NCBI GenBank assembly: GCA_024638385.1
Contig: JAHEKJ010000034.1
Span: forward strand, 1 to 32,451
Reading direction: 5' to 3'
Source: Gammaproteobacteria bacterium
GTDB lineage: Bacteria > Pseudomonadota > Gammaproteobacteria > GCA-001735895
DNA length: 32,451 nucleotides
Shown: positions 4,676 to 29,628 of the stretch, piece after piece
Numbering within the stretch: position 1 is the stretch's first letter
Layout: each line of letters opens with the position of its first letter
Made by a program: the position numbers and the translations under genes
The notes under the pieces: model-generated
What the model was told of the DNA's origin: nothing
Databases searched by the model: none
What the model saw: the letters and a program-made list of their open reading frames with translations, nothing else

Positions 4676-4750
4676 GACATCTCCCCTGGTTGCGACTGCC
4701 GGCCCGCGACACCCGCTCGAACTACCGCTACGGCGCGATCTTTATTCGAA

Positions 4751-4775
4751 CCCGGGGAGCATCGCGCTCCCCGGG
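4751..4775 (-). promoter_or_regulatory. intercistronic stem-loop between frcB and frcC
   Basis: A perfect 10-base-pair inverted repeat (arms CCCGGGGAGC and GCTCCCCGGG) with a 5-base loop lies downstream of the frcB stop and upstream of the frcC start. In the direction of transcription it is followed by TTCGAATAAA and not by a T-run, so it is more likely a partial attenuator or a 3'-end stabiliser of a separate frcB message than a full terminator. Such elements raise binding-protein output relative to the permease. Confidence 0.7.
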
Positions 4776-4812
4776 GCGATGGGTGTGACCTACCCCCGAC
4801 AATACGGTCCGC

Positions 4813-5990: not shown

Positions 5991-6339
5991 CTAATTATAC
6001 CCTGGGCGCGCAATCTCCGCATGCTGAATTGCTGACTGATCGCTTGCCTCGTCCCCGGGCTGCCTTCGCGTCGGCTACCTTCTGTTTTATGCGGGGATGG
6101 TAACACGATTGCGGCGGATTGCAGCACCCGCGCGACCTCCAGACCCACGCCAACCATCCCGTCAGAATCCCCCGCGACCCGGGCACGCGGCGCCTGCATT
6201 CCGCCGCGATGTTCCCTATAATTCCAGCCAGGGGCGCGGCCGACGGCATCTCGGCAACCGTCGTGCCGGCAACCAGGGCGTGCGGACCGGCGGGGGATTC
6301 CGGCATGAACATCTTAAGACCAAGCATCCGGCGGCCGGC

Positions 6340-7560: not shown

Positions 7561-8409
7561 TCAGGACCGGACGGCGGCGTCCGGGCGCAACAGGTCGATC
7601 ATTCGCCCGGCCTCGGCGGTCACCGCCGGCATGACCCGGCGCATGATCGTCAGCCGGTCGAACAACTCCGGGTCGGCGGCGAGCGTCTCGCGCAGCGCAT
7701 CACCGAAACTGCGGCGCACCGTGGTGCCGATATTGAACTTGCAGACGCCGCCGCGCGCGAGTCGCACCAGGTCCGCCTCGCGGATGCCGCTGGTGCCGTG
7801 GATCACGAGCGGCAGGTCCACGCATTCCAGCAGCGCGTCGAAACGCGTGAAATCGATCTCGGCGGCCTGGGTCTGCAGGCGGTGGACGTTGCCGACCGAG
7901 ACCGCGAGCGCGTCGGGATCGCCCCGCTCGGCCATCGCGATCGCGTCGTCGATCGCCGTCAGCTCGGACTTGATGTGATCGCGGCCGCTGGCGTAGGGCA
8001 CCGAGCCGACCTCGGCCTCGACCGAGACCCCGCGCGGGCGGGCGTAGTCGACGACCCGGCGCACGCCGGCGACGTTGTCGTCGAGCGGCAGCTGCGAACC
8101 GTCGTACATGACCGAGGTAAATCCCGCGTCGACCGCGGCGAGCACGGTGTCGATCTCGTAGTTGTGATCGAGATGCAGGCACACCGGCACCGCGGCGGCC
8201 TCGGCCAGCGGGTTGAACAGGCCGACGATGCTGTCGAGCGACATGAAGTCGAGCATGTCGAGGTTGACCGCGAGGATCACGCCGGTGCCGCGCGCCTCGG
8301 CGGCGTCGACCACCGCGCGCGCGTCCTCGTAGCCGAACACGTTGAAGCAGCCGACCGCGTAGCCGCCGGCGCGCGCCGGCGGCAACAAGTCCCGTAAATT
8401 GGCCCGCAT
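7561..8409 (-). CDS. iolJ: class II fructose-bisphosphate-type aldolase, IolJ-like
   Basis: Zinc-dependent aldolase of 282 residues. Metal and catalytic residues are visible in HLDH (H79, D81, H82), EAEVG (131-135), GNVH (H176) and VIHGTSG (H204), and the phosphate-binding KFNIGT is at 224-229. The SVEAEVGSV segment and the overall length resemble Bacillus IolJ, which splits 2-deoxy-5-keto-gluconate 6-phosphate into dihydroxyacetone phosphate and malonate semialdehyde. Placement as the last gene after an IolB-like isomerase and a PfkB kinase supports this. It starts 4 bases after the isomerase stop. A tagatose- or fructose-bisphosphate aldolase role for a related substrate remains possible, since operon B appears to carry its own aldolase domain. 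Confidence 0.85.
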   Translation of the reverse strand: MRANLRDLLPPARAGGYAVGCFNVFGYEDARAVVDAAEARGTGVILAVNLDMLDFMSLDSIVGLFNPLAEAAAVPVCLHLDHNYEIDTVLAAVDAGFTSVMYDGSQLPLDDNVAGVRRVVDYARPRGVSVEAEVGSVPYASGRDHIKSELTAIDDAIAMAERGDPDALAVSVGNVHRLQTQAAEIDFTRFDALLECVDLPLVIHGTSGIREADLVRLARGGVCKFNIGTTVRRSFGDALRETLAADPELFDRLTIMRRVMPAVTAEAGRMIDLLRPDAAVRS

Positions 8410-8413
8410 GAAC

Positions 8414-9253
8414 TTACTTGAACTTGCTGATCATGTCCTTGATGCCCGGAATGGTCTCGAGCTGGTAGGCATGTTCGGGGTGGAAGAACTGGTGCAGCGG
8501 CCGCTGCGACTGGCCGGCGAGAACCGTGAAGTAATACATTTCGTAGCCCGGCGCGGAGACGCAGGGATGGTAGCCTTCGTCGATCAGGATCGTCGAGCCG
8601 TTGCGAATGTGGTAGACCTCGCCCATGTCCTCGCCGTCGCCGGTCAGAAACTGCGCGCCGAAGCCGTGCTCGGGATTGAAGCGGAAGTTATAGACTTCGT
8701 CGTGGCGGGTCTCCTCCGGCAGGCTGTCGGTGTCGTGCTTGTGCGGCGGAAAGCCGGACCAGCCGCCGGCGCCGACGGTGAACAGTTCGCTGACCAGCAG
8801 TCGCCCCACCTGCCCGGGCGGCGACTTGCCGAGGATGTGCTTGATCTTGCGGTGCGTCTTGGTGTCGTCCGAGCCGTACTGCACCGGGTCGATGTCGGCC
8901 TCGCGCACGACGAAGGGCGCGTAGACCTCGTCGTGGCGGGCGCCGGCGACGAAGACTTCGACGGCGTCGCTGACACAGGTGATCTCGGCGGCGGCGCCGA
9001 CCGGCACGTAGACGCCCTCGGGTTCGCGCTGCCAGATGTGTTCGCGGTGGCCCACGGCGTCGAAGGTCTGCCCCATGACGGCGACGTCGACGCTGCCGGT
9101 CGCCGGCACGATACAGGTCTCGTAACCGTCGACCTGCGAGACGAAGGATTCGCCGCGCTTCAGCTTGACGATATTGAAGTAACACAGCGGAACCCGCTCG
9201 TTGTCGCGATCGACGATCGCCTCGTTGTGGTTGTCGTAATGTGGAATATGCAT
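8414..9253 (-). CDS. iolB: divergent IolB-family 5-deoxy-glucuronate isomerase
   Basis: Bicupin isomerase of 279 residues. The metal-binding set HKHD (H171, H173), E180 in LPEE, and H229 in GYHP is intact, and the FPPHKHD-LPEE core identifies the IolB/KduI-like family. It is clearly different from the canonical IolB at 19504-20307. The canonical LEETYYH block reads RHDEVYNF here, and the block VYTDDRSLDETM and the C-terminal HNDPAHEW are replaced. It therefore probably acts on a related deoxy-uronate or keto acid, or is an old paralogue. ATG at 9253 (MHIPHYD) lies 2 bases after the kinase stop. It sits between kinase and aldolase in operon A. Confidence 0.8.
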   Translation of the reverse strand: MHIPHYDNHNEAIVDRDNERVPLCYFNIVKLKRGESFVSQVDGYETCIVPATGSVDVAVMGQTFDAVGHREHIWQREPEGVYVPVGAAAEITCVSDAVEVFVAGARHDEVYAPFVVREADIDPVQYGSDDTKTHRKIKHILGKSPPGQVGRLLVSELFTVGAGGWSGFPPHKHDTDSLPEETRHDEVYNFRFNPEHGFGAQFLTGDGEDMGEVYHIRNGSTILIDEGYHPCVSAPGYEMYYFTVLAGQSQRPLHQFFHPEHAYQLETIPGIKDMISKFK

Positions 9254-9255
9254 GT

Positions 9256-10242
9256 CTAGCTCCAGTGGGATGCGGGCTGCATCCGGTTGTCTCGCTGCAC
9301 CGCGGCGAGTTGCGCCGGGTCGGGCATCGCCGCGCCGCAGCCGCGGCGCGAGACCGCGAACGCGGCCGCCGCGCTGGCGGCGGCGATCGCGCGCTGCCAG
9401 TCGCCGTCGGCGTCGAGGTGAACGATCAGGTTGCCGAGGAAGGCGTCGCCCGAACCGTAGGGTTTCAGCGCCGGCAGCGGGTAGATGCCCGAGTCGAGGC
9501 GGCCGTCGTCGACGAATACGCTCGAGCCGGCCGCGCCGCGCTTCTGCACCATTACCTGCCCGCGCGCACGGCAAGTGGCAGCCAGGCGCTCGATATCGTC
9601 GTCGAGCACGGCGAACTCCTCGTCGTTGCCGACCAGCACCTGCGCCGCGGCCGCGGCCTCGGCATAAACCTCGCGGGTCTGCTCCGGCGACGGCCAGTTC
9701 CACGCGCGGTAGTCGAGGTCGAACCAGATCCGGCAGCCGTGTTCGCGCGCGGATAGCATCGTCGCCGCGACCGCCGCGCGCGAGGCCGCGTCGATCAGGC
9801 TGGTGCCGGTCACGACCAGATGCGAGGTGCCGGCGAGCGCCGCGTCGACGGCCGGGGTAAAACGATAGGCCAGGTCCGCCGGGTCGTTGCGGTAGATGAC
9901 GACCTCGCAGTCGGCGGCGCGCACCTCGGCCAGCGCCAGGCTCGTGCGCTCGTTGCCGCGGGTCTCCGCTACCAGCTCGAGCTCGACGCCGAGGCCGGCC
10001 AGGCGCGCGCGGACGAATTCGCCGACGCCGTCGGCCGACAGCGCCGACAGCAGCCCGACGCGGGCGCCGGCGCGCGCCATCGCCGCGGCGATGTTGCCGG
10101 CCGAACCGCCGAGATCGGCGGCGAAGGATTCGGCCTCGGCGAGGCGGCAGCCATCGGGTTGCGGGTACAGATCGAGCCCGGCCCGGCCGAGCACCAGCGC
10201 GAGGCGCTCGCGCGACCTGGACCGGGTCGCCGGCTCAGACAT
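9256..10242 (-). CDS. iolC: PfkB-family kinase, 5-dehydro-2-deoxygluconokinase-like (single domain)
   Basis: Sugar-acid kinase of 328 residues. The N-terminal GRAGLDLYPQP (19-29) and GGSAGNIA (45-52) parallel the IolC in operon B, and the C-terminal catalytic motif is GSGDAF (263-268, Asp266 as base), a Ser variant of the usual GAGD. The segment FDLDYRAWNW (174-183) corresponds to DIDYRPNLW of canonical IolC. It lacks the C-terminal DUF2090 domain found on the second IolC. The first 10 residues are polar and poorly conserved. The gene overlaps the upstream dehydrogenase by 8 bases. Context (isomerase and aldolase downstream) implies phosphorylation of 2-deoxy-5-keto-gluconate or an analogue. 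Confidence 0.82.
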   Translation of the reverse strand: MSEPATRSRSRERLALVLGRAGLDLYPQPDGCRLAEAESFAADLGGSAGNIAAAMARAGARVGLLSALSADGVGEFVRARLAGLGVELELVAETRGNERTSLALAEVRAADCEVVIYRNDPADLAYRFTPAVDAALAGTSHLVVTGTSLIDAASRAAVAATMLSAREHGCRIWFDLDYRAWNWPSPEQTREVYAEAAAAAQVLVGNDEEFAVLDDDIERLAATCRARGQVMVQKRGAAGSSVFVDDGRLDSGIYPLPALKPYGSGDAFLGNLIVHLDADGDWQRAIAAASAAAAFAVSRRGCGAAMPDPAQLAAVQRDNRMQPASHWS

Positions 10243-11359
10243 CGACCCACTCCCCGGACAGAGCCGAGCGGTCGATCGCGTCCATGACCCGCTCGATCTT
10301 GATGCCGTCGGCGAACGCGGGCCAGGCCGGCTCGCCGGTCTCGATCGCGCGCAGCAACTGGCGCAACTCGCAGACCTTGACGTCGATAAAGCCGAGGCCG
10401 TGGCCGGCGTTCGGCAGGAAGGCGGCGTAGGGTTCGTGGTACTGGCCGGACAGGATCGTGCGGAAGCCCTGTTGCCGCGGGTCTTCGCTGCGGGTGTAGA
10501 GCTGGATTTCGTTGAGCCGCTCCTGGTCGTGACAAATCATGCCCTGCGCGCCGTGGATCTCCCAGCGCAGGCCGCACTTGCGCCCCCAGGCGACGCGGCT
10601 GACCCGCAGCGTGCCCTTGATGCCGCTGGCGAAATGCGCCAGCGCCATGCAGACGTCGTCGTTGTCGACGTTGCGCAGCCGGGCGGGGTCGACCGGGTCG
10701 CGGCGCTCGCGGTGCACGGTGTCGTAGTCGCCGACGACCCGGGTGATTTCGCTGCCGGTCATCAGGTGCGCCATGCTGACGAGGTGGCACATGACGTCGG
10801 CGTTGGCGCCGGTGCCCGAGGCTTCGCGGCTCATGCGCCAGCTGAACGGGCGCTCGGGGTCGGCCTCGTTGTCGACGTCGTAGACGCCGTGAAAACCGAT
10901 CACGCGGCCGATCGCGCCCTCGTCGATCAGGTCGCGCGCCGCGCGCACCAGCGGGTTCTGCGTGTAGTTGTAGCCGAGCAGCGTCTGGCAATCCGAGCCG
11001 CGCGCCGCGGCGAGCATCGCCTCGGCCTCGGCGACGCTGGTCGCCATCGGCTTTTCGCACCAGACGTGCTTGCCCGCGGCGAGCGCGGCGACCGCGATTT
11101 CGCGGTGCATCGCGTTGGGTACGCAGATGGAGATCAATTCCACCGCCGGGTCGGCGACGACGTCGCGGTAATCCGTGGTCGCGCGGGCGAAACCCATCTC
11201 GGCCTGTTTCGCGCGCACGCGCTCGGCATCGATATCGCACAGCATTTCCAGGCGCGGGCGCAAGCCGTCGCCGAATACCGTGCCGGCGGCGGCGTAGGCG
11301 ATCGAATGCGCCTTGCCCATGAACGCGGTGCCGATGACACCGATGCCGATTTCTTTCAT
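10235..11359 (-). CDS. Gfo/Idh/MocA-family dehydrogenase (inositol/sugar type), operon A copy
   Basis: NAD(P)-dependent oxidoreductase of 374 residues. The Rossmann motif GVIGTAFMGKAH (7-18) is followed by the catalytic lysine in CEKP (K103) and the active-site pair D188 and H192 in ADVMCH. It aligns along its length with the protein at 22264-23373 (shared AVGAVF/AAGTVF, GLRPRLEM, GFARATTD/GFSRATAD, LLGYNY/MVGYNY, AGHGLGF/AGHGTGY), so the two divergent operons carry paralogues. The start at ATG 11359 is chosen because the fold begins at residue 4; an upstream extension has no such support. Its likely role is oxidation of an inositol isomer, an inosose or a sugar entering operon A. The exact substrate is unknown. 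Confidence 0.85.
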   Translation of the reverse strand: MKEIGIGVIGTAFMGKAHSIAYAAAGTVFGDGLRPRLEMLCDIDAERVRAKQAEMGFARATTDYRDVVADPAVELISICVPNAMHREIAVAALAAGKHVWCEKPMATSVAEAEAMLAAARGSDCQTLLGYNYTQNPLVRAARDLIDEGAIGRVIGFHGVYDVDNEADPERPFSWRMSREASGTGANADVMCHLVSMAHLMTGSEITRVVGDYDTVHRERRDPVDPARLRNVDNDDVCMALAHFASGIKGTLRVSRVAWGRKCGLRWEIHGAQGMICHDQERLNEIQLYTRSEDPRQQGFRTILSGQYHEPYAAFLPNAGHGLGFIDVKVCELRQLLRAIETGEPAWPAFADGIKIERVMDAIDRSALSGEWVDV

Positions 11360-11474
11360 CCGTTGTCTCGATCGAATGCCAAATCGATTCTTGCCTTCAA
11401 AATGCCGGTCGCCGGGGCCGCATTCGGGCTCCAACTATACCAACATCTCGAACATCCCATTACTCCAGCCGAAA

Positions 11475-12263
<789 letters not shown>

Positions 12264-12264
12264 G

Positions 12265-13389
12265 TCATCGCTCCCCCGTGATGATGCGGCGAATATAGGT
12301 GTTCAGAATGACCGCGAACAGCAGGATCACGCCGAGGAATACGCGGAACAGAGAACTTTCGACACCGGCGAAGAACAGGCCCTGCTGGACCACGCCGAAT
12401 ATCAGCGCCCCGAGCGCCGCGCCGATGACCGAGCCGTAACCGCCGGTCAGCAGCGCGCCGCCGATGACGACCGCGATAATGGCCTCGAATTCCTTCAGCA
12501 GTCCGCGGTCGGCGCCGGCCGAACCGAATTCCATCACCTGGCAGGTGGCGAAGACCGTCGCGCAAAAGGCGGTGAACATGAACATCAGGATCTTGACGCG
12601 ATTCACCGGCACACCGGTGTAGCGGGCCGCCTGGGCATCGCCGCCGGCAGCGAAAATCCAGTTGCCGAAACGGGTCCGGGTCAGCAGCACGTGGCCGAAG
12701 ATGACCAGTACGATCGCCCAGACGATCAGCATCGGCACGCCGTCCACCACCGGTTGCCCGGCGCGGGTACCGCGCTCGAAGGTCGCGATGATGCCCGCCT
12801 CGCCCATCCACTGAAACGCCCCGGTGAAGATCTTGCCGCCGAACAGCGGCGCCAGCCAGTCGCCCTGTGCCGTGTCCCGGATGCCGCCGATGATGGTTTT
12901 CCGTTCGATCGTCTGCGGCAGATAAATCGTAAAACCGCGCAGGATGAACAGGAATGCCAGGGTTACGATGAAGCTCGGCAAGCCGGTGCGCACGACGATA
13001 TATCCGTTGAGGGCGCCAATCGACAGCGCCAGCACGAAGGTAACGAGAATCGCCAGCCAGATCGGCCAGCCCAGCACCACGCCGAATATGGCGATCATCA
13101 TGCCGGCGAAACCGATCATCGACCCGACCGACAGGTCGAATTCGCCGGCGATCATCAACAGGCAGGCGCCGACGGCGATGATCATGAACTGGGCCGAAAC
13201 CTGGCTCCAGTTCATGATGCCCTGGGAGTTGAACATGCCGCTGTCGAAGGCGAACAGCAGAAACAGCGCGAATACGACGATCGTACCCACTATGCCGCCG
13301 AGTTCGGGGCGGATCATGGCTTCGCGCAAGCGGGACCGCTGTTTGACCCGTTCGTCTTCAGCGGCGGTTGGTGGCGTTGTGTCTGACAT
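12265..13389 (-). CDS. CUT2 sugar/inositol ABC transporter permease
   Basis: Polytopic inner-membrane protein of 374 residues, BPD_transp_2 family. A polar N-terminus of about 30 residues precedes the first helix ([18 protein letters not shown]). The hallmark GEFDLSVGS occurs after the second or third helix, [11 protein letters not shown] in the middle, and the ATPase-contacting [15 protein letters not shown] near the C-terminus. A loop of about 60 residues between helices (around residues 150-210) is longer than in FrcC. A GAGG ribosome-binding site lies 8 bases before ATG 13389. Substrate is inferred as a cyclitol from the neighbouring operon genes. Confidence 0.9.
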
Positions 13390-13424
13390 ATCCGAACCTC
13401 GATTGATTTCGAATCTGTTGAAGT

Positions 13425-13458
13425 GGCGGGCAGCCGGTCGATGCCCGGCCGCCCCGCC
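13425..13458 (-). promoter_or_regulatory. intercistronic stem-loop after the operon A binding-protein gene
   Basis: Imperfect GC-rich hairpin between the binding-protein stop and the permease start: outer stem GGCGGG/CCCGCC (6 pairs), a 2-by-3 internal loop, inner stem GCCGG/CCGGC (5 pairs) and a 7-base loop. No T-run follows. It occupies the same place as the stem-loops after frcB and after the gtsA-like gene. Confidence 0.6.
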
Positions 13459-13468
13459 TCAGGCCGGT

Positions 13469-14425
13469 CTAGCGGTATTCACCCGCATACTTTTCCACCA
13501 TCTCCAGTGCGTCGGCGGTCACGAAACCGGGACCGGAGTTGATGTTGTTGCCGGGCAGCACGCCGTAGCGGTGGTAGTTGGTCATCACCACGACCGGCAG
13601 GTAAGCCTGCAGGAAGGGTTGCTGATCGATGCCCCACTCGATAATGCCCGCCTTGATGCCCTTGACGATTTCCTCGCCCAGATCGAAGGTGCCGAAGTAA
13701 ATGTCCCCGGCCATGCCGTTTTCCTGCAGGGCCTGCATGGTCGGATCGGCCGACACCGGTCCCAGCGTCAGTATGGCCTCGGTCTTCGGGTTGGCGGCAA
13801 GATAAGCCTTTACCTTGTTCTTGATTTCCGACGGGTCGGTGCCGCTGTCGAGCATCGAATTGCCGAGCTCGATGCCGAGGCCGTCGGCAAATCCGCGGCA
13901 GCGTTCGCCCAGGGTCGGTTGCTGAATCGAGTGGTTGACGCAAAGAAAGCTGCCGATGCCGTCACCCTTCGCGCGCAGGCCGGCGGCGTAGCCGGCGTCG
14001 TATTCGGGCTGACCCACGTACATCAGCGCGCCGACCTCGCGCGCCTGATCCGGCGTGCCCGTGTTCATGATGATCACGTCGATACCGGAGGCAACCGCGT
14101 TCTTGATGGGTCCTTCGAGTACGTCGTAGTCGGCCAGGGTGGTGATGATGCCGTTCGGTCCGGACGCGGCCGCCTGGTCGATGATGCGCGCCATGTCGGC
14201 GATGTCACCGGTCGGCGGGTTGCGATACTCGACGTCGACGCCCATTTGCTTGCCGGCCAGGGCGATGCCGTTCTTGATCGTGTTCCACCAGGAATCGGAA
14301 TCGGGCGCATGGCTGACGAGGATGTATTTTTCGCCGGCGGCCGAGACCGATGTCGAAATCAGTGCGAGAGGAGCCGCGACCGCCAGTGACAAGGCAGCCG
14401 CCGTCCATAGTTTCATTTTTTTCAT
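13469..14425 (-). CDS. periplasmic sugar/inositol-binding protein, Peripl_BP_4 family
   Basis: Solute-binding protein of 318 residues. The Sec signal peptide (MKKMKL, hydrophobic core, SVSA-AGEK, cleavage after about residue 29) is clear. The mature protein opens YILVSHAPDSDSWWNTIKNG, the first strand and ligand loop of the ribose/inositol class, with later TTLADYDVLEGPI and the conserved AILTLGPVSAD. A strong GGAGG ribosome-binding site lies 5 bases before ATG 14425; a second ATG at codon 4 is less well spaced. It is the first gene of operon A, divergent from the RpiR regulator, so probably controlled by it. Similar proteins occur beside iol genes in rhizobia; inositol as ligand is an inference. 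Confidence 0.88.
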   Translation of the reverse strand: MKKMKLWTAAALSLAVAAPLALISTSVSAAGEKYILVSHAPDSDSWWNTIKNGIALAGKQMGVDVEYRNPPTGDIADMARIIDQAAASGPNGIITTLADYDVLEGPIKNAVASGIDVIIMNTGTPDQAREVGALMYVGQPEYDAGYAAGLRAKGDGIGSFLCVNHSIQQPTLGERCRGFADGLGIELGNSMLDSGTDPSEIKNKVKAYLAANPKTEAILTLGPVSADPTMQALQENGMAGDIYFGTFDLGEEIVKGIKAGIIEWGIDQQPFLQAYLPVVVMTNYHRYGVLPGNNINSGPGFVTADALEMVEKYAGEYR

Positions 14426-14831
14426 CCGATCCTCCAGAATATGGTTCAGGTTGTTTACTGTCGTAAATGTATTGAGTACGTTTTAAGAGCTATCGCTCCA
14501 GTTGCCAGTGAGTCAAGCATTTGTCCGGGTCCGGTTGACGGTTGCGGGTTTTGCGGTTTCCACCCGATCTCGATCGGGTAAGTCTGACCCCGTCGTTTTT
14601 ATCCACGTCCCTCTTAGCTTGCGCTTAACCCCGAGACAGCCGAGTTTTAACACTTTAAAAAAAAAATTACAACTTAATCAGAAATGAAATAAATATTCCA
14701 AATATAAAACGGATTGGGTATACTGCTCCGCCATCGAGGTCGATTCGCAATAATCCGTTGCAGCAAGCGCGTTCCGCCGCCCCGGCCGACTGGACGACTC
14801 GCAGCTAACGCCAAAAACCGGAACAGGCAAT
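14426..14831. promoter_or_regulatory. 406-base divergent control region between operon A and the rpiR/iol operon B
   Basis: No gene is supported here. From the operon A side the region holds an inverted repeat TTTAC-TGTC-GTAAA (14454-14467) about 30 bases upstream of the binding-protein start, then a 7-pair hairpin ACCCGAT-CTCG-ATCGGGT (14562-14579). An extremely AT-rich block (about 14642-14710) follows, including ten consecutive A residues (14657-14666), which could act as an UP element or bent DNA. Then come a palindromic candidate operator and a plus-strand -10-like TATACT (14719-14724). The placement suggests that both operons are controlled from here. Confidence 0.6.
14685..14700. promoter_or_regulatory. 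candidate RpiR/IolR operator
   Basis: A 16-base inverted repeat TGAAATA-AA-TATTCCA with six of seven arm pairs matched. Within it GAAA-N6-TTCC resembles the GGAA-N6-TTCC element proposed for the RpiR-type IolR of Sinorhizobium, differing at one base. It overlaps the place where the -35 region of the TATACT promoter would fall, upstream of the regulator gene, which fits autorepression and control of operon B. Confidence 0.5.
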
Positions 14832-15656
14832 ATGGCCACCGTCATCGAACAGGAACCGCCGCGGGTATTCAGTCAATTGAAACCCTGGCTGCAGGAGCAC
14901 TTCACCGCATTGCCCAAGCGGCTGCAAAGCGTGGCCGTTTTTGCGCTGCATAATCCGGATATCATCGCGCTGAATACGATTGCCGTGATCAGCGAAAAGG
15001 CCGAAGTGACGCCGTCGACGCTGGTCAGATTCGCCAAGTCGATCGGCTACAGAGGTTTTTCCGACATGCAGGAAGTATTTCAGGAAAGCATGCGTCACAT
15101 GCCGCAGCCGTATACCCAGCGCCTGCATCGGCTCGAAGACGCCGGCGCAGCCGAGCAGACCGTATTGCATCGATTCAGCCGCGCGGCCGCGGCCTCGATA
15201 GACCGGCTCGAGCAGCAGGTCGACGAGCAGGCGATCAAACAGGCGAGCCGGCAACTGGCCGCGGCGCGGACGATTTATATTGCCGGTCAGGGCAGGGCCA
15301 CGCCGGTGACGACTTATTTGCACTACACCCTGATCAAAATGGGCCTGCAAGCGGTACTGTTGGACGGCATCGCCTCGACGTTCTCCGACAAGACCCGGCT
15401 GATTCGCCGCGACGAGATTCTGATCGCGGTCAGTTTCAGTCCATATACCGCGAATACCCGCGAGATCGTGGATATTTGTCTCGCGCAAAAGGTCCCGGTG
15501 GTCGCAATAACCGATTCCACGCTGAGTCCGATCGCGCGATCGGACGATTTGCATCTCGAGGTGCTCGAGGAAGAGGTCGGCGGCATTCGCGGGCTATCGG
15601 CGACCATGTGTCTCGCGCTCTGTCTCGCCGTCGAAACCGGCAAGCTGGCCTCGTGA
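14832..15656 (+). CDS. iolR: MurR/RpiR-family transcriptional regulator, IolR-like
   Basis: DNA-binding regulator of 274 residues. An N-terminal HTH_6 domain (about residues 14-90, with LNTIAVISEKAEVTPSTLVRF and RFAKSIGYRGFSDMQ as the recognition region) is followed by a SIS domain (about 125-265) that normally binds a phosphosugar. GQGRATPVTTYLHY marks the start of the SIS fold. It stands between the divergent operons and immediately before iolC, the place taken by rhizobial RpiR-type IolR, a repressor relieved by a late inositol intermediate such as 2-deoxy-5-keto-gluconate 6-phosphate. The start at ATG 14832 is the first codon with family-like sequence and leaves the operator and -10 box upstream. 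Confidence 0.9.
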   Translation: MATVIEQEPPRVFSQLKPWLQEHFTALPKRLQSVAVFALHNPDIIALNTIAVISEKAEVTPSTLVRFAKSIGYRGFSDMQEVFQESMRHMPQPYTQRLHRLEDAGAAEQTVLHRFSRAAAASIDRLEQQVDEQAIKQASRQLAAARTIYIAGQGRATPVTTYLHYTLIKMGLQAVLLDGIASTFSDKTRLIRRDEILIAVSFSPYTANTREIVDICLAQKVPVVAITDSTLSPIARSDDLHLEVLEEEVGGIRGLSATMCLALCLAVETGKLAS

Positions 15657-15729
15657 AAGCATTCGAGACAGCCCCGTGTCGGTCCCGCTTTCGCCGGCGA
15701 TCGGATGAGTATTATTGCGAGGCGACGTT

Positions 15730-17634
15730 ATGAAACCTGATCTGGACGTCATCTGCATCGGCCGCGCCGGCGTCGATTTGTACGGTCAACAGGTCGGCGG
15801 TCGTCTCGAGGATATGGCCAGTTTCGCCAAGTACGTCGGTGGCAGCCCGACCAATACGTCGATCGGCGCCGCGCGTCTCGGCCTGAAGTCGGCGCTGCTG
15901 ACCCGGGTCGGCGACGAACACATGGGGCGATTCATTCGCGAAACCCTCGAGTCGGAGGGTGTCGACACGAGCAACGTGATCACCGATCCCGAGCGCCTGA
16001 CGGCCCTGGTGTTGCTCGGCATTCAGGACGAGAAGCGCTTCCCGCTCATTTTCTACCGTGAAAACTGTGCCGACATGGCGCTGTGCGAGGACGATATCGA
16101 CGCCGGGTTCATCGCCCGCAGCCGCGCCGTCCTGGTGTCGGGCACCCATCTGAGCACCGCCCGGGTCGCGGCCGCAAGCCACCGGGCGATGAAACTGGCG
16201 CGGGCCAATGGCGCCAGGGTTGCGCTCGACATCGACTACCGCCCCAATCTGTGGAATCTCGCCGGCCATGGCGAAGGTGAATCGCGGTTCATCGCCGATC
16301 AGGGCGTCAGCCGGCACTTGCAGAATTACTTCGGCGACTGCGATCTGATCGTCGGGACCGAGGAGGAATTTCACATTGCCGGCGGCAGTGAAGACAGTCT
16401 GCAGGCGCTGGCCAACGTGCGCGCGCTCACCGACGCGACCCTGGTCTGCAAGCGCGGGGCGCTGGGCTGCCGCGTGTTCGAGGGGCGGATCGATGGTTGG
16501 GAATCGGGGGTCGCGGGACCGGGTTTCAGGGTCGAAGTGTTCAACGTGCTGGGCGCCGGCGACGCCTTCATGGCCGGAATACTCCGCGGCTGGCTGCGCG
16601 ACGAAGACTGGCCAACGACCTGCGCCTACGCCAATGCCTGCGGCGCCCTCGCGGTATCGCGCCACGGCTGTTGCCCGGCCTACCCGTCCGAAATCGAATT
16701 GCTCGGATTCATCGAATCCGGCAGCGAATTCGAGGCGCTCAGATTCGATCGCCGGCTGAATTACATTCACCGGGTCACCAACCGGCGCCGCCGCTACGAC
16801 CGCCTGCTGGTGTTTGCCTTCGATCATCGCCGCCAGTTCGAATCCTGGGCCGCGGACCACGCCAGGCAGCGGGATGCGATCGGCCGATTCAAGCAACTCG
16901 CATGGCAGGCCGCCGCCGCGGAAGGCGAGCAAGATCGCGGCTTCGGCGTTCTGGTGGATGACCGGCTGGGGCGCGAGGCCCTGCATGCCGCCACCTCGAG
17001 CGGCGCCTGGGTGGGCAGGCCGATCGAAGCATCGGGCCAGTTTCCACTCGCTTTCGAGGCCGACGGTGAACTGGCCGAACACCTGGCGGACTGGCCGGTG
17101 ACGCAGACGGTCAAGGTGCTCTGTCCGTACCGAATCGACGATGACGCGGGCATCCGCGATCATCACGAAAGCATGATTCTTAAGCTGGATCGGGCTTGCC
17201 GCCACAGCGGGCACGAATGGTTGCTGGAAATCGTCACCGCGCGCGATGGCGGCCACCCGCAATTCGATACCGTGGCGGAAATCATGTCCCGTTTCTACGA
17301 AATCGGGGTAAAGCCCGACTGGTGGAAACTCGAGCCCGGGCCGGCGGAGGAATACTGGCAAGCGATCGGGGCGGTGATCGAAGCCAACGACGCTTATTGC
17401 CAGGGCGTGATCGTGCTCGGTCTCGACGGCAGTATCGAGTCGATTTCGAAAACCTTTGAAGCGGCCGCGCGGCAATCCCGGGTCAAGGGGTTCGCGATCG
17501 GCCGCACGATTTTCGGCGAATCGGCCCGATCGTGGCTGGCCGGGCGAATCGACGACGCCACCGCGGTAGCGCAAATGCGCGCCCGTTACCGGGAACTGAT
17601 CGCTGCCTGGGACGAGGTCCGCGCGCAAGTATAA
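15730..17634 (+). CDS. iolC: bifunctional 5-dehydro-2-deoxygluconokinase / DUF2090 aldolase-like protein
   Basis: Two-domain protein of 634 residues. Residues 1-330 are a PfkB kinase: GRAGVDLYG (11-19), GGSPTNTSIG (37-46), DIDYRPNLW (167-175) and GAGDAF (275-280, catalytic Asp278). Residues about 345-634 are a DUF2090 domain, related to class I-type TIM-barrel aldolases, with FAFDHR (362-367), LEIVTARDGG and DWWKLEP; K533 in the last is a possible Schiff-base lysine. Such fusions are annotated as kinase plus 5-dehydro-2-deoxyphosphogluconate aldolase, which would phosphorylate and cleave the same intermediate. The ATG at 15730 has a GAGG site 8 bases upstream; a TTG 15 bases earlier is unlikely. 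It is the first catabolic gene of operon B. Confidence 0.92.
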   Translation: MKPDLDVICIGRAGVDLYGQQVGGRLEDMASFAKYVGGSPTNTSIGAARLGLKSALLTRVGDEHMGRFIRETLESEGVDTSNVITDPERLTALVLLGIQDEKRFPLIFYRENCADMALCEDDIDAGFIARSRAVLVSGTHLSTARVAAASHRAMKLARANGARVALDIDYRPNLWNLAGHGEGESRFIADQGVSRHLQNYFGDCDLIVGTEEEFHIAGGSEDSLQALANVRALTDATLVCKRGALGCRVFEGRIDGWESGVAGPGFRVEVFNVLGAGDAFMAGILRGWLRDEDWPTTCAYANACGALAVSRHGCCPAYPSEIELLGFIESGSEFEALRFDRRLNYIHRVTNRRRRYDRLLVFAFDHRRQFESWAADHARQRDAIGRFKQLAWQAAAAEGEQDRGFGVLVDDRLGREALHAATSSGAWVGRPIEASGQFPLAFEADGELAEHLADWPVTQTVKVLCPYRIDDDAGIRDHHESMILKLDRACRHSGHEWLLEIVTARDGGHPQFDTVAEIMSRFYEIGVKPDWWKLEPGPAEEYWQAIGAVIEANDAYCQGVIVLGLDGSIESISKTFEAAARQSRVKGFAIGRTIFGESARSWLAGRIDDATAVAQMRARYRELIAAWDEVRAQV

Positions 17635-17663
17635 TATTCAACCGAATTTCGAGGACAGTCATC

Positions 17664-19502
17664 ATGGGGACAATTCGACTCACCGCCGCGCAGGCGATAA
17701 CGCGATACCTGATCAACCAGTTCGTGCGCCTGGACGACGGTTCCGAACTGCCGCTGTTTGCCGGCGTCTGGGCCATTTTCGGTCACGGCAACGTCGCCGG
17801 ACTCGGCGAGGCGCTATACCACGTGCAGGATCAGCTGCCGACCTATCGCGGCCACAACGAGCAGAGCATGGCGCACGCGGCAATCGCTTATGCCAAGGCG
17901 AGGCGCCGCCAGCAGATCATGGTGGCGACCTCGTCGATAGGTCCGGGCGCAACCAACATGGTAACCGCCGCCGCGGTGGCGCACGTCAATCGAATTCCCC
18001 TGCTGTTGATTCCGGGTGACGTTTTCGCCTCGGGATTGCCCGACCCGGTGCTCCAGCAGGCCGAGGATTTTGCCGATGGCAGCGTCAGCGTCAACGACGC
18101 CTTCCGCCCGGTGAGCCGTTACTTTCACCGCATCACGCGCCCGGAGCAACTGGTGCAGGCCTTGCCCCGGGCCATGGTGGCGCTGACGGATCCCGCTTAC
18201 TGCGGCCCGGCCACGATCAGTCTCTGCCAGGACGTGCAGTCGATGGCCTTCGATTTTCCCGAGGCCCTGTTCGAACGGCGCAGCCGGAGCCTGCGGCGGC
18301 CGGCGCCGGACGCGGACGAACTGGAACAGGCGCGCGACGCGCTGCGAGCGGCGCGCAAACCGGTCATCGTCGCCGGTGGCGGCGTACGCTACTCGCGCGC
18401 CGAGGCCGCTTTACAGGCATTCGCCGAAGACCACCGGATTCCCGTGGTCGAGACCCAGGCCGGCAAGTCCTCGCTGCCGGCCGGGCATGCGCTCAACTAC
18501 GGCGCGGTCGGCGTCACCGGCGTCAGCTGCGCCAATGAGCTGGCGCGCGCGGCCGACCTGGTGCTGGCGGTCGGCAGCCGCCTGCAGGACTTTACCACCG
18601 GCTCCAACAGCCTGTTCAAGGGCCGCGTCATTCAGCTCAACGTGCAGGCAATGGATGCGGCCAAATACCGCGCCCAGCCCTGCATCGCGGATGCGCGGGT
18701 CGGTCTCGAAACGATTTCCGCGGGACTGGGCGACTACCAGGCCGATGCGCAATGGCTGGCTTTTGCCGATCAGGCGCGCGAGGAATGGCTCGGCGTCCAG
18801 CGCCAGCATGTCGAGGCGACCGACGACCAGACCATACCGAGCGATGCCCAGGTCGTGACCGCGGTCAACCGCAGCGTGCCGCAGGATGCGATCGTCGTCG
18901 CCGCCGCCGGCAGCCTGCCGGCGGAACTGCACAAACACTGGAACAGCGCCGATGTCGGGGGCTACCACCTCGAATACGGTTATTCCTGCATGGGTTACGA
19001 AATTGCCGGCGGGGTCGGGGTCAAGCTGGCCGAACCCGAGCGCGAGGTCGTGGTCCTGGTCGGCGATGGTTCGTACCTGATGCTGAATTCCGATATTGCC
19101 ACCGCCGTAAGCCTGGGTCTCGAGCTGACCGTCGTGGTGCTCGACAATCGCGGCTTCAGCTGCATCAATCGCCTGCAGATGGCGACCGGCGGCGCCAACT
19201 TCAACAACCTGTTGCGCGATACGCGCAATCAGGGCCTGGCCGAAATCGATTTTGCCGCGCACGCGGGCTCGATGGGTGCCCGCGCCGAACAGGTCGAAAC
19301 CATCGGCGAGTTGAAAGCGGCGGTGGCCGCGGCTTCGTCGCGCGACGGCGTCAACGTGATCGTCATCGATACCGATCCGGTGCACTCGACCCCGGGGAAT
19401 TGCTGGTGGGAAGTCGAGGTGCCGGAAGTGTCCGCGCGCAGCGAGGTGGTCGACAAGCACCGCGCCGCGGTGGCAACGCGGATTCGTGAGCGAGGATACT
19501 GA
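17664..19502 (+). CDS. iolD: 3D-(3,5/4)-trihydroxycyclohexane-1,2-dione hydrolase IolD
   Basis: Thiamine-diphosphate enzyme of 612 residues that opens the inositol-derived ring to 5-deoxy-glucuronate. The cofactor-activating glutamate is E66 in YRGHNEQSMAHAA. The central FAD/nucleotide-like domain follows (about 205-330, VIVAGGGVRYS). The ThDP-Mg motif starts at GDG (467-469) and ends 26 residues later at N495, with D468 and N495 as metal ligands. C-terminal NCWWEVEVPEVS is typical of IolD. A GAGGA ribosome-binding site lies 8 bases before ATG 17664. It is followed at a 1-base gap by the canonical iolB. Family and length match well. Confidence 0.96.
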   Translation: MGTIRLTAAQAITRYLINQFVRLDDGSELPLFAGVWAIFGHGNVAGLGEALYHVQDQLPTYRGHNEQSMAHAAIAYAKARRRQQIMVATSSIGPGATNMVTAAAVAHVNRIPLLLIPGDVFASGLPDPVLQQAEDFADGSVSVNDAFRPVSRYFHRITRPEQLVQALPRAMVALTDPAYCGPATISLCQDVQSMAFDFPEALFERRSRSLRRPAPDADELEQARDALRAARKPVIVAGGGVRYSRAEAALQAFAEDHRIPVVETQAGKSSLPAGHALNYGAVGVTGVSCANELARAADLVLAVGSRLQDFTTGSNSLFKGRVIQLNVQAMDAAKYRAQPCIADARVGLETISAGLGDYQADAQWLAFADQAREEWLGVQRQHVEATDDQTIPSDAQVVTAVNRSVPQDAIVVAAAGSLPAELHKHWNSADVGGYHLEYGYSCMGYEIAGGVGVKLAEPEREVVVLVGDGSYLMLNSDIATAVSLGLELTVVVLDNRGFSCINRLQMATGGANFNNLLRDTRNQGLAEIDFAAHAGSMGARAEQVETIGELKAAVAAASSRDGVNVIVIDTDPVHSTPGNCWWEVEVPEVSARSEVVDKHRAAVATRIRERGY

Positions 19503-19503
19503 G

Positions 19504-20307
19504 ATGAGCCGATTACTGGTCAAACCGGCCGCGCGTCAACCGGTTCAGCGCATCACGCCGGACAGCGCCGGCTGGAAGTACGTCGGCTTCGAATTGTACG
19601 ACCTGGATGCCGGCGAAGAACTGGAGCTGCAGCAGGACGGGCGCGAACTATGCCTGGTCGTCTTATCCGGCACCGCCCGGGTCGAGGTCGCGGCGCAGCG
19701 CTGGGATGAAGTCGGCGGCCGCGGCTCGGTGTTCGAAGACCGGGCCCCCGGCGCGGTTTACGTGCCCGCCGGCGAGGCCGCGCGGGTCGCGGCGCAATCG
19801 CCGCTCGAGCTTGCCGTATGCAGCGCGCCGGGGACGGGGGCAAGCGGGCCCGCGCGCCTGATCGAGGCTGCGAAAATGTCGCGCGAGGTGCGGGGCAAGG
19901 GTACCAACACGCGCCACGTGCGCAATATTCTGCCCGAGACCGAGCCGGCGGATAATCTACTCGTGGTCGAGGTCATTACGCCGCCGGGTCACTGGTCTTC
20001 CTATCCGCCGCACAAGCACGATCGCGACGCCCTGCCCGAAGAAAGCCGGCTCGAGGAAACCTATTACCATAGACTCGACCCGTCCAGCGGCTACGTGCAT
20101 CAGCGGGTTTATACCGACGATCGCAGCCTCGATGAAACCATGAGCGCCGAGGATCGCGACGTGGTGCTGGTGCCCGAGGGTTATCATCCCGTCGGCGTGC
20201 CGCATGGCTATACCAGTTACTATCTGAACGTGATGGCGGGGCCGGTGCGGGAATGGCATTTCCACAACGACCCGGCGCACGAGTGGATCATCGAGCAGGC
20301 AGGTTGA
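19504..20307 (+). CDS. iolB: 5-deoxy-glucuronate isomerase IolB (canonical)
   Basis: Bicupin isomerase of 267 residues converting 5-deoxy-glucuronate to 2-deoxy-5-keto-gluconate. Conserved blocks are RHVRNILPE (137-145), WSSYPPHKHD (164-173; metal ligands H170 and H172), E179, LEETYYH (183-189), VYTDDRSLDETM (202-213), GYHPVGVPHGYTSYYLNVMAGP and the C-terminal HNDPAHEW. These match Bacillus IolB closely. ATG at 19504 follows the IolD stop by one base with GAGGAT upstream; a GTG 18 bases earlier would overlap iolD and is less likely. This is the working IolB of operon B, in contrast to the divergent copy in operon A. Confidence 0.95.
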   Translation: MSRLLVKPAARQPVQRITPDSAGWKYVGFELYDLDAGEELELQQDGRELCLVVLSGTARVEVAAQRWDEVGGRGSVFEDRAPGAVYVPAGEAARVAAQSPLELAVCSAPGTGASGPARLIEAAKMSREVRGKGTNTRHVRNILPETEPADNLLVVEVITPPGHWSSYPPHKHDRDALPEESRLEETYYHRLDPSSGYVHQRVYTDDRSLDETMSAEDRDVVLVPEGYHPVGVPHGYTSYYLNVMAGPVREWHFHNDPAHEWIIEQAG

Positions 20308-20311
20308 GCCG

Positions 20312-21211
20312 ATGCAACTGAAATTCGGCATGTCCCCGATTTCGTGGACCAACGACGACCTGCCGCAGCTCGGCGGAGACACTTCGCTCGAAACCTGTCT
20401 GCGTGAAACCCGCCAGGCCGGATACTCGGGCACCGAAATGGGCGGCAAGTTTCCCCGCGACGAAGCGTCGCTGCGTCGGGTGCTGGCGGCACACGACCTG
20501 AAACTGGTTTCGGGCTGGTATTCCGGGACCCTGCTCGACAACACGGTGGCGCGCGAGATCGAACGCATCAAGCCGCAGCTCGAGTTGTTCGCCGCGCTCG
20601 AAGCCCCGGTTATCGTCTACGGGGAAACCTGGCAGACGGTGCAGAATCGCCGGGACCAGCCGCTGCAAAACAAACCGCTGCTGGCGGAGGCGGAATTTCC
20701 CGCCTATGGCGAACGCCTGACCGGCGTCGCCGAGTATTGCGCCGGGCAGGGGGTGCCGTTGACCTTTCATCACCACATGGGCACCGGGGTCGAGACCGAG
20801 GAAGAGCTCGATCGGGTGATGGCCAATACCGGCGAGGCGGTGGGGTTGCTGGTCGATACCGGTCATCTGCTGTTTGCCGGCGGCGATATACTGGCCGTCA
20901 TTGCAAGATACGGGTCGCGGATCAATCACGTGCACGCCAAGGATATTCGCGCCGAGGTACTGGCCACGGTGAACCGTGAAACCGACTCGTTCCTCGACTG
21001 CGTGCTGCGCGGCGTTTTTACCGTCCCGGGAGACGGCATGATCGATTATCGCGGCGTGATGCAGGCGCTTGCCGAGCAGCGCTACGAGGGCTGGGTCATC
21101 GTCGAGGCGGAGCAGGACCCTGCATTGGCCGATCCCTACGAATACGCCTGTATCGGCTACCGGGCATTGCAACAGGCGGCGCTTGCCGCCGGCTACACGA
21201 TAACCCGGTAG
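20312..21211 (+). CDS. iolE: inosose dehydratase IolE
   Basis: TIM-barrel enzyme of 299 residues, xylose-isomerase-like fold, dehydrating scyllo-inosose to the trihydroxycyclohexanedione used by IolD. Characteristic pieces are FGMSPISWTNDD at the N-terminus, TEMGGKFP, the HHHMGTGVET loop (153-162), LLVDTGHL (179-186), INHVHAKD (204-211) and VIVEAEQDP (262-270). The probable metal ligands include D182, H206 and E265. It follows iolB by 4 bases and precedes iolG by 8 bases, so it is co-transcribed. The identification is firm. Confidence 0.95.
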   Translation: MQLKFGMSPISWTNDDLPQLGGDTSLETCLRETRQAGYSGTEMGGKFPRDEASLRRVLAAHDLKLVSGWYSGTLLDNTVAREIERIKPQLELFAALEAPVIVYGETWQTVQNRRDQPLQNKPLLAEAEFPAYGERLTGVAEYCAGQGVPLTFHHHMGTGVETEEELDRVMANTGEAVGLLVDTGHLLFAGGDILAVIARYGSRINHVHAKDIRAEVLATVNRETDSFLDCVLRGVFTVPGDGMIDYRGVMQALAEQRYEGWVIVEAEQDPALADPYEYACIGYRALQQAALAAGYTITR

Positions 21212-21219
21212 GCGCGGCG

Positions 21220-22218: not shown

Positions 22219-22263
22219 CTATCTGGTCAGGCCAACGGTCGAGGCCGCAACGGGGGAAGGCTC

Positions 22264-26009: not shown

Positions 26010-26045
26010 TGCCGGGGCCGGCAACACACCACGGAGGACATTGAC

Positions 26046-27011: not shown

Positions 27012-27080
27012 GCGTAATCACGCAGTAGCAACGCGACCGCCAATCGGCGCGCCGAGTAATGGTAGAATTGCCGAACTCGC

Positions 27081-27097: not shown

Positions 27098-27126
27098 CGG
27101 ATCGTTCCGGACAAGAGGCATTCGCC

Positions 27127-29610: not shown

Positions 29611-29628
29611 GCCTCATTCGCTAGAAAC

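What the first reader, a model, noticed from the sequence alone, without database searches (positions are those of the whole stretch)
7561..20307. Two complete but non-identical isomerase-kinase-aldolase sets in divergent operons
Operon A (minus) encodes a divergent IolB, a single-domain PfkB kinase and a class II zinc aldolase. Operon B (plus) encodes a canonical IolB and a kinase fused to a DUF2090 aldolase-like domain. The two sets use different aldolase folds, and the IolB copies differ in several conserved blocks while keeping their metal ligands. This is not a recent duplication. Operon A has its own CUT2 importer and dehydrogenase but no IolE or IolD. Either it borrows ring opening from operon B for another cyclitol, or it is a self-contained transporter-dehydrogenase-isomerase-kinase-aldolase route for a different open-chain or deoxy substrate. 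The latter would be a pathway I do not recognise as described.
Basis: partly seen in the sequence, partly recalled or inferred. Interest (0 to 1): 0.75.

Follow-up and report, generated by a model that had tools for sequence, protein, structure and literature searches.

The report
Two lower inositol pathways, one ring-opener
A bacterium carries two different enzyme sets for the last steps of breaking down inositol, but only one set of ring-dehydrating and ring-opening enzymes, so the "mystery" operon is most likely a second half of a known inositol pathway rather than a new pathway.

Summary
Operon A (minus, 7561-14425) has a class II aldolase, a divergent IolB, a PfkB kinase, a Gfo/Idh dehydrogenase and a CUT2 importer. 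Operon B (plus, 14832-24527) has RpiR, IolC-DUF2090, IolD, IolB, IolE, IolG, a second Gfo and a PhyH-like gene. The IolBs are 36% identical and fall in separate clades.

The self-contained-route reading is not supported. Operon A's kinase-IolB-aldolase trio is contiguous in 79 of 80 loci; at least 47 of these also hold iolD, an IolE-family gene and a Gfo. 45 of 49 genomes searched have iolD. In a genome tagged as Phaeobacter, the trio supplies the only IolB and class II aldolase found; P. inhibens' IolJ-like aldolase was assigned to myo-inositol catabolism from published fitness data. Operon A's dehydrogenase keeps seven of eight residues that act or bind in scyllo-inositol dehydrogenase. A conserved palindrome lies between the operons.

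Most likely, operon A imports and oxidises inositol, uses operon B's IolE and IolD, then runs a second lower branch (IolB2-IolC2-IolJ). Whether that branch handles the same intermediate or a stereoisomer is open. It is a new variant of a known kind.

The parts
7561..8409 (-). class II zinc aldolase, IolJ-like (type-2 lower module)
   Evidence: PF01116 234 bits, no NCBIfam model over its cut-off; next to IolB2 in 79 of 80 loci; the only PF01116 match at E<=1e-20 of Phaeobacter-tagged genome G164 is its counterpart
8414..9253 (-). IolB2, divergent 5-deoxy-glucuronate-isomerase-type cupin
   Evidence: PF04962 265 bits; TIGR04378 178.7 bits, below cut-off 205; separate clade from canonical IolB; only solved relative found at E<=0.01 is 2QJV, an IolB-like protein
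9256..10242 (-). IolC2, single-domain PfkB kinase
   Evidence: TIGR04382 255 bits, below cut-off 300; best PDB match 2QCV putative 5-dehydro-2-deoxygluconokinase
10235..11359 (-). Gfo/Idh dehydrogenase of the scyllo-inositol dehydrogenase type
   Evidence: best PDB match 5YA8, 366 bits; K106, Y135, Y163, R178, D191, H195, H318 kept, E165 is V (residue roles from PMC5969746 passages)
11475..12263 (-). CUT2 importer ATPase
   Evidence: 84-85% identical to the ATPases beside the type-2 inositol clusters L008 and L164; lower in some other loci
12265..13389 (-). CUT2 importer permease
   Evidence: 85-86% identical to the permeases beside the type-2 inositol clusters L008 and L164; lower in some other loci
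13469..14425 (-). CUT2 substrate-binding protein, rhizopine/inositol type
   Evidence: NF052284 rhizopine SBP 265 bits, below cut-off 420; 84% to the one in L008; top PDB match 4RU1, 131 bits
14685..14700 (.). candidate shared operator: TGAAATAAATATTCCA, one mismatch from the palindrome form TGGAA-N6-TTCCA
   Evidence: a site with at most 1 mismatch stands in 5 of 5 loci with a divergent rpiR gap (window, L012, L013, L015, L020; three of them aligned, where the pattern was first seen). Absent in L018 and L022, where rpiR follows iolG directly. Arms and spacing match the Caulobacter inositol motif GGAANATNCGTTCCA (PMC2597717 passage). In the window alone such matches are common by chance
14832..15656 (+). 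RpiR-type regulator, likely the shared iol regulator
   Evidence: PF01418 + PF01380; same position in G020 and G033
15730..17634 (+). IolC-DUF2090 kinase-aldolase fusion (type-1 lower module)
   Evidence: NF047869 729 bits, over cut-off 600
17664..19502 (+). IolD, canonical clade; the only iolD found in the genome
   Evidence: TIGR04377 866 bits, over cut-off 715; canonical side of the IolD tree
19504..20307 (+). IolB1, canonical
   Evidence: TIGR04378 344 bits, over cut-off 205
20312..21211 (+). IolE, canonical; the only iolE match of the genome
   Evidence: TIGR04379 400 bits, over cut-off 290
21220..22218 (+). IolG inositol 2-dehydrogenase
   Evidence: TIGR04380 423 bits, over cut-off 355
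22264..23373 (+). second scyllo-inositol-dehydrogenase-type Gfo, close to a Gfo of type-2 clusters
   Evidence: 68-74% to that Gfo in L006-L008; best PDB 5YA8, 311 bits, Y163 is H. Not found in the G033 stretch, where the PhyH-like gene follows iolG
23370..24527 (+). PhyH-like protein sometimes found near iol clusters
   Evidence: 51% to a neighbour in L007; in 13 of 80 loci; 'PhyH' is my reading, no NCBIfam model matched and Pfam was not run on it

Best explanation
Operons A and B are two halves of one inositol divergon. Operon A supplies the inositol-type CUT2 importer, a scyllo-inositol-dehydrogenase-type Gfo and a second lower module (IolB2-IolC2-IolJ). Operon B supplies the regulator, IolG, the only IolE and IolD, and the canonical lower module (IolB1 and the IolC-DUF2090 fusion). 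Proposed steps: import of inositol; oxidation to an inosose by IolG or a Gfo; dehydration by IolE; ring opening by IolD to 5-deoxy-glucuronate; then either module isomerises, phosphorylates and cleaves to DHAP and malonic semialdehyde, which an MMSDH/IolA elsewhere in the genome takes up. Shown by computation: gene content, families, kinship of the trio to complete inositol clusters, single iolD and iolE, presence of an MMSDH, conserved inositol-contact residues, shared palindrome. Inferred: the actual substrates, that IolB2 takes IolD's product here, and co-regulation.
For: The three closest plasmid relatives that I opened (63-67%; three of eight between 60 and 80%) lie in one cluster with iolD, an IolE-like TIM barrel, Gfos and, in TM1040, iolG. 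The trio is contiguous in 79 of 80 loci and iolD is local in 57 of 80. iolD is found in 45 of 49 genomes; of 23 loci without a local iolD, 19 lie in genomes that have one, one of them only a partial match below cut-off. Phaeobacter-tagged G164: one PF04962 (A-type, E<=1e-40), one PF01116 (A-type, E<=1e-20), no DUF2090 (E<=1e-20), one iolD, a complete cluster. Fitness data assign the P. inhibens IolJ-like aldolase to myo-inositol catabolism (PMC9007349, passage). G074, G080 and G083 have an A-type IolB, no canonical-range one, and a DUF2090 protein, which hints at interchangeable parts. Gfo contacts conserved. Kinase closest to 2QCV. Single iolD and iolE in G000. MMSDH in G000, G020 (partial) and G033. 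Three Thioglobus-like loci (L018, L022, L023) hold both IolB/IolC sets with one IolD and one IolE on one strand. Shared palindrome.
Against: 4 of 49 genomes have the trio and no iolD at E<=1e-100: G042, G049, G057 (MAGs) and G054 (draft isolate); G042, G049 and G054 also lack an IolE-family match. 13 positions separate IolB2 from IolB1 at 97% or more, three of them (H184, N189, F190) close in sequence to E186, so specificity may differ. G164 is a Phaeobacter relative by 95% DNA identity over 2,231 of 2,689 bases of one P. inhibens plasmid stretch, not proven to be P. inhibens; that PGA1_c07220 lies in this cluster is inferred. No result shows that IolB2 accepts 5-deoxy-D-glucuronate. Operon A's Gfo has V where 5YA8 has E165.
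Confidence: 0.62

Rival explanations
1. Stereoisomer branch: operon A's Gfo oxidises an inositol at another position or another isomer. IolE and IolD accept the resulting inosose, and a diastereomeric 5-deoxyhexuronate results that only IolB2-IolC2-IolJ can process. Both branches end at DHAP and malonic semialdehyde because the aldol cleavage removes the differing stereocentres.
For: Both IolB types stand in 37 of 50 genomes examined, all known beforehand to hold the A-type (plus 2 with a truncated canonical IolB), and in Thioglobus-like assemblies of 1.6-1.7 Mb (G067, G069, G070; completeness not told) with one iolD and one iolE. 5YA8-type scyllo-IDH was reported to bind myo-inositol so that L-epi-2-inosose would form (PMC5969746 passage). 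Diagnostic residues lie close in sequence to E186. Type-2 clusters have their own IolD clade and an IolE-like protein below the IolE cut-off.
Against: In Phaeobacter-tagged G164 and seven other genomes with an A-type IolB, no canonical-range IolB and no DUF2090, the trio is the only lower branch found, and the P. inhibens IolJ-like aldolase is assigned to plain myo-inositol. Canonical iolG sits in the type-2 cluster of TM1040, with a 73% counterpart in G164.
Confidence: 0.26
2. Self-contained importer-dehydrogenase-isomerase-kinase-aldolase route for an open-chain or deoxy sugar, independent of IolD and IolE.
For: 4 of 49 genomes have the trio without a detected iolD, three of them also without an IolE-family match. 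L017 has operon A-type genes followed by a second IolC-like kinase, an alcohol dehydrogenase and another IolB-like gene, with no iolD in its bin above 251 bits.
Against: 19 of 23 loci without a local iolD lie in genomes with one. Three of the four exceptions are MAGs; the fourth, Aliiruegeria haliotis, has the LacI gene and the trio with no more than short weak matches to other cluster genes between them. The Gfo keeps ring-substrate contacts.
Confidence: 0.06
3. Redundant or decaying horizontally acquired leftover of a type-2 cluster with no distinct role.
For: The window's genome has one iolD, of the canonical clade, and one iolE, canonical; the type-2 IolD and IolE-like protein common elsewhere are absent.
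Against: All seven operon A genes are intact in the window, and their layout is conserved at 58-84% identity in G020 and G033.
Confidence: 0.06

Closest known systems
Inositol cluster of roseobacters with IolJ-type aldolase (Phaeobacter inhibens PGA1_c07220, by inference; Ruegeria sp. TM1040 megaplasmid cluster)
   Same: related IolB2-IolC-IolJ trio in the same order, same CUT2 importer type (84-86% permease and ATPase), related Gfo
   Different: there with its own type-2 IolD, IolE-like protein, LacI regulator and second Gfo; here those are absent from operon A and a canonical RpiR iol operon stands opposite
Canonical proteobacterial iol operon with IolC-DUF2090 (DUF2090 proposed as DKGP aldolase, PMC9007349, passage)
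   Same: operon B's IolC, IolD, IolB, IolE and IolG pass their NCBIfam cut-offs
   Different: paired here with a second, paralogous lower module
Bacillus subtilis IolB/IolC/IolJ lower pathway (recalled; IolJ also cited in PMC9007349)
   Same: isomerase, single-domain kinase, class II aldolase
   Different: operon A's IolB and kinase fall below the NCBIfam equivalog cut-offs; not compared directly with the B. subtilis sequences
scyllo-inositol / L-glucose dehydrogenase of Paracoccus laeviglucosivorans (5YA8)
   Same: catalytic and most contact residues kept in operon A's Gfo
   Different: E165 replaced by V; activity unknown

Membership tests
5-deoxy-glucuronate isomerase (IolB, TIGR04378 equivalog) | score over the curated cut-off of 205 bits | tested here: not met
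   IolB2 178.7 bits; Ruegeria counterpart 154 bits. The model may be too strict: an A-type protein is the only PF04962 match of G164
KduI/IolB superfamily (PF04962) | over gathering score, HxH...E...H residues kept | tested here: met
   265 bits against 23.9; H171, H173, E186, H229 at >=97% in 96 A-type and 51 canonical sequences
5-dehydro-2-deoxygluconokinase (TIGR04382) | over cut-off of 300 bits | tested here: not met
   operon A kinase 255 bits; the Ruegeria counterpart passes with 310 bits
class II DHAP aldolase (PF01116), IolJ type | LDH, GxxH, HGxSG, KxNxGT motifs for zinc, catalysis and DHAP (motif roles recalled) | tested here: met
   all four seen in the window protein, with HGTSG and KFNIGT. 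Across 101 relatives the plain pattern LDH is found in 85, HGxSG in 100 and KxNxGT in at least 89. That the enzyme is IolJ rather than another class II aldolase was not tested by activity
scyllo-inositol dehydrogenase subfamily (5YA8) | K106, D191, H195 catalytic; Y135, Y163, E165, R178, H318 contacts | tested here: inconclusive
   7 of 8 kept in operon A's Gfo (E165 is V); 7 of 8 in operon B's second Gfo (Y163 is H)
self-contained pathway without IolD/IolE | occurs regularly in genomes lacking iolD and iolE | tested here: not met
   iolD in 45 of 49 genomes; iolE-family match in 47 of 50; lacking both: G042, G049 (MAGs), G054 (draft isolate)
inositol catabolic pathway | enzymes act on inositol-derived intermediates; growth needs them | not testable with these tools
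   indirect: published P. inhibens fitness result for the IolJ-like aldolase (PMC9007349 passage)

The most novel reading that the evidence does not exclude
A bacterium runs two stereochemically distinct lower branches from one IolE/IolD pair. IolB1/IolC-DUF2090 takes the myo-inositol-derived 5-deoxyhexuronate and IolB2/IolC2/IolJ a diastereomer made from another inosose. That would explain why even small Thioglobus-like genomes hold both, and would give a route for inositol isomers that needs no prior epimerisation to scyllo-inosose.
Probability: 0.22. Interest if true: 0.6.

Novelty: new variant of a known kind. Interest (0 to 1): 0.33.

Why it matters
It separates two paralogous inositol pathway types in Pseudomonadota: RpiR / IolB1 / IolC-DUF2090 / canonical IolD and IolE, and LacI / IolB2 / IolC / IolJ / type-2 IolD / IolE-like. 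Current models blur them: NCBIfam's IolB cut-off excludes both A-type proteins tested, yet an A-type protein is the only IolB found in several genomes. It shows natural hybrids in which two lower modules share one ring-opening step. That makes it directly testable whether inositol isomers are handled by separate lower branches or all funnel through one inosose.

Tried and rejected
Considered and rejected: recent duplication (36% identity, separate clades); assembly or contamination artefact (same synteny in G020 and G033); open-chain substrate route (see rivals); viral carriage of IolB2 (no confirmed relative in viral contigs). The Caulobacter motif with 3 mismatches gave no more hits than chance in the window, and the looser TGGAA-N6-TTCCA pattern is also common by chance there. 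Only its conserved position across 5 loci carries weight, and three of those five were used to see the pattern. A sigma-70 and terminator scan gave nothing beyond shuffles. Structure prediction and fold searches were not run. Paper searches that led nowhere; one search returned only the paper already in hand. In the listings I saw no paper describing the two cluster types or the hybrid. The survey PMC9430895 (passages only) mentions duplications and divergons, kept one representative cluster per genome, and in the passages I saw does not separate IolB types. The automatic Gfo residue patterns were too crude and are not used; Gfo residues were read off the printed alignments. The GxxH pattern matched anywhere in the protein and is not used as a count.

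Recalled, from no call: that 4RU1 was solved with myo-inositol; that PGA1_c07300-07320 are the P. inhibens inositol transporter; metal-ligand and aldolase motif roles; the steps of the canonical pathway; MocF.

Changed on checking: the count of loci with an IolC-DUF2090 match is 11, not 12, because L017's match covers only the kinase part; 'often iolG' became 17 of 80; operon B identities in G020 and G033 start at 62% (a partial iolG).
Full report
What is there. The window is a whole 32,451-base contig (C107) of genome G000, 232 contigs, 91.14% complete and 5.41% contaminated. Operon A reads leftwards from 14425 to 7561: CUT2 binding protein, permease and ATPase; a Gfo/Idh dehydrogenase; a PfkB kinase; an IolB-like protein; a class II aldolase. 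Operon B reads rightwards from 14832: RpiR regulator, IolC-DUF2090, IolD, IolB, IolE, IolG, a second Gfo and a PhyH-like gene. Operon B's IolC, IolD, IolB, IolE and IolG all pass their NCBIfam cut-offs. Operon A's IolB (178.7 of 205 bits) and kinase (255 of 300) do not. The IolBs are 36% identical, the kinases 32%.

The layout is real and conserved. Two related genomes, G020 and G033, have the same A|RpiR|B arrangement. Operon A genes are 58-84% identical there. Operon B genes are 62-83% (the lowest a partial iolG in G020, whose contig ends there), except the PhyH-like gene (44% in G033); operon B's second Gfo was not found in the G033 stretch.

Operon A's trio is a known-looking module from complete inositol clusters. 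The best matches to IolB2 in plasmids (eight records at 60-80%) include Rhizobium sp. WL3, Marinovum algicola and Ruegeria sp. TM1040, the three that I opened. In each, IolB2 lies directly between a kinase and a class II aldolase and downstream of iolD, with an IolE-like TIM barrel and Gfo dehydrogenases. In TM1040 the IolD (802 bits), kinase (310) and IolG (431) pass the NCBIfam cut-offs, while IolB2 (154) and the IolE-like protein (174) do not. Kinase-IolB2-aldolase is contiguous in 79 of 80 (exception L093). A Gfo is near in 70, iolD in 57, an IolE-family gene in 57, the CUT2 binding protein in 26 and the PhyH-like gene in 13. A LacI gene is near in 45, iolG in 17 and a match to IolC-DUF2090 that reaches beyond the kinase part in 11. 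The set of LacI, type-2 IolD, IolE-like, Gfo and trio is complete in 31 of 80; any iolD with an IolE-family gene and a Gfo in 47 of 80. As 20 of 80 loci are shorter than 18 kb, these are floors.

Co-occurrence with ring opening. I searched 49 genomes (those of 50 of the 80 loci, including all 23 loci without a local iolD). iolD is found in 45 of 49 at E<=1e-100 and over the curated cut-off in 43. Of the 23 loci without a local iolD, 19 lie in genomes with one elsewhere, one of these (G041) only a partial match below cut-off. The exceptions are G042, G049 and G057 (MAGs) and G054 (Aliiruegeria haliotis). With a looser limit, G054, G057 and G049 still show none, and G042 only a 251-bit match, well below the 715-bit cut-off. 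IolE-family matches at E<=1e-25 occur in 47 of 50 genomes; the three without are G042, G049 and G054. In the A. haliotis locus the region between the LacI gene and the trio shows only short weak matches to other cluster genes. These exceptions count against a strict link to ring opening, but three are MAGs, which may be incomplete.

A-type as the only IolB. Among 50 genomes searched with PF04962 (49 chosen for holding the A-type, plus G000), 37 have a canonical-range match (300 bits or more) besides the A-type, 2 a truncated canonical one (G049, G069), and 11 none (G042, G054, G057, G068, G073, G074, G079, G080, G083, G086, G089). G068 has two further matches of uncertain type (229 and 183 bits), and G042, G054 and G080 weaker ones. 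To reach the experimentally studied Phaeobacter, I used a named P. inhibens plasmid stretch as a tag. The best genome, G164, matches it at 95% over 2,231 of 2,689 bases, the next at 75%. G164 has one PF04962 match, which is A-type, one PF01116 aldolase at E<=1e-20, which is the one in the cluster, no DUF2090 and one iolD. Its locus reads ATPase, permease, binding protein, LacI, Gfo, IolE-like, Gfo, IolD, kinase, IolB2, aldolase, IolG, PhyH-like. Four further genomes among the 36 (G310, G290, G401, G138) likewise have an A-type match alone and no DUF2090. Price et al. state that the IolJ-like protein PGA1_c07220 of P. inhibens was identified using fitness data, and that only two of 11 bacteria with myo-inositol data encode IolJ-like proteins while the other nine have IolC-DUF2090 fusions (PMC9007349, passages). 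That PGA1_c07220 and the cluster's aldolase are the same gene is my inference. G074, G080 and G083 have an A-type IolB, no canonical-range one, and a DUF2090 protein, so the parts may mix.

Trees. IolB2 and canonical IolB separate cleanly (93 rows, 48 A-type, 43 canonical, 2 intermediate; quick method, SH-aLRT only: A-type branch 89, canonical 100). IolD of type-2 clusters also forms its own side of the tree (57 rows). The window's IolD falls with the canonical group of 9, which includes the four Thioglobus-like loci (66 rows). The window lineage is therefore a hybrid: a full type-1 pathway plus only the lower module, a Gfo and the importer of type 2. The second Gfo of operon B is 68-74% identical to a Gfo of type-2 clusters. 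In three Thioglobus-like loci (L018, L022, L023) both sets stand on one strand with one IolD and one IolE; a fourth, L021, is cut off at one end. The three of these genomes that I searched (G067, G069, G070; 1.6-1.7 Mb, completeness not told) have one iolD and one iolE each.

Chemistry hints. The dehydrogenase's best solved relative is scyllo-inositol / L-glucose dehydrogenase 5YA8 (366 bits). Reading the alignment against the residues given in PMC5969746 (passages), K106, Y135, Y163, R178, D191, H195 and H318 are kept and E165 is V. Operon B's second Gfo keeps all but Y163, which is H. IolB2 and IolB1 share 33 positions that are at least 97% conserved in both, including the HxH...E...H set, and differ consistently at 13 (96 A-type against 51 canonical sequences). 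A malonate-semialdehyde dehydrogenase is present in G000, G020 (partial) and G033, and in G033 one copy lies on the same contig just past the iol genes.

Regulation. Between the divergent operons lies TGAAATAAATATTCCA (14685-14700). A site with zero or one mismatch to TGGAA-N6-TTCCA stands in all five divergent-rpiR loci I scanned (window, L012, L013, L015, L020). The expectation is 0.003-0.043 per region, by a simple mononucleotide shuffle. The pattern was first seen in an alignment of three of these five, so only L015 and L020 are fresh tests. In L015 the neighbour across the gap is a different importer. The arms resemble the Caulobacter inositol motif (PMC2597717 passage). The two Thioglobus-like loci scanned have no such site; rpiR there follows iolG after about 20 bases.

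Conclusion. The most likely meaning is a hybrid inositol divergon in which operon A imports and oxidises inositol and supplies a second lower branch, while ring dehydration and opening come from operon B. It is not a self-contained new pathway on this evidence. The open and interesting part is whether the two branches are redundant or stereo-specific.

Noticed in passing
L010 11965-18019 (Rhizobium johnstonii 3841 pRL10) and L011 12001-12822: A third IolB-like group (43-46% to IolB2), in L010 beside a peptide-type ABC importer, a glycosyl hydrolase, a TIM-barrel protein, a hydroxyacid dehydrogenase and a mandelate-racemase-type enzyme, with no kinase or aldolase annotated in the stretch shown: possibly a sugar-acid route.
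   Followed up: no
L017 6563-10771 (uncultured Desulfofustis MAG contig): Operon A-type genes followed by a second IolC-like kinase, a zinc alcohol dehydrogenase and another IolB-like protein; no iolD over cut-off in the bin. Short contig, possibly misbinned.
   Followed up: partly
L059 6450-11661 (Aliiruegeria haliotis): LacI gene and the kinase-IolB2-aldolase trio without a detected iolD or iolE in the genome; the region between them holds only short weak matches to cluster genes.
   Followed up: partly
1861-5844: A second CUT2 importer (binding protein nearest RbsB, below its cut-off) with a PfkB kinase, on the minus strand.
   Followed up: no
6097-7560: FAD-dependent ferredoxin reductase nearest to aromatic-dioxygenase reductases (below cut-offs), abutting operon A's aldolase end to end on the other strand; rhizopine catabolism also uses a ferredoxin reductase (MocF, recalled).
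   Followed up: no
24795-32449: Downstream of operon B: an AGE-type isomerase/epimerase (nearest D-mannose isomerase, below cut-off), two further Gfo/Idh proteins and a CUT1 importer, suggesting a glycoside or keto-sugar utilisation island.
   Followed up: no
L093 746-19045 (Bauldia sp. MAG): Both pathway types interleaved in one locus, with the type-2 aldolase separated from IolB2 by an importer: the only one of 80 loci where the trio is not contiguous.
   Followed up: no
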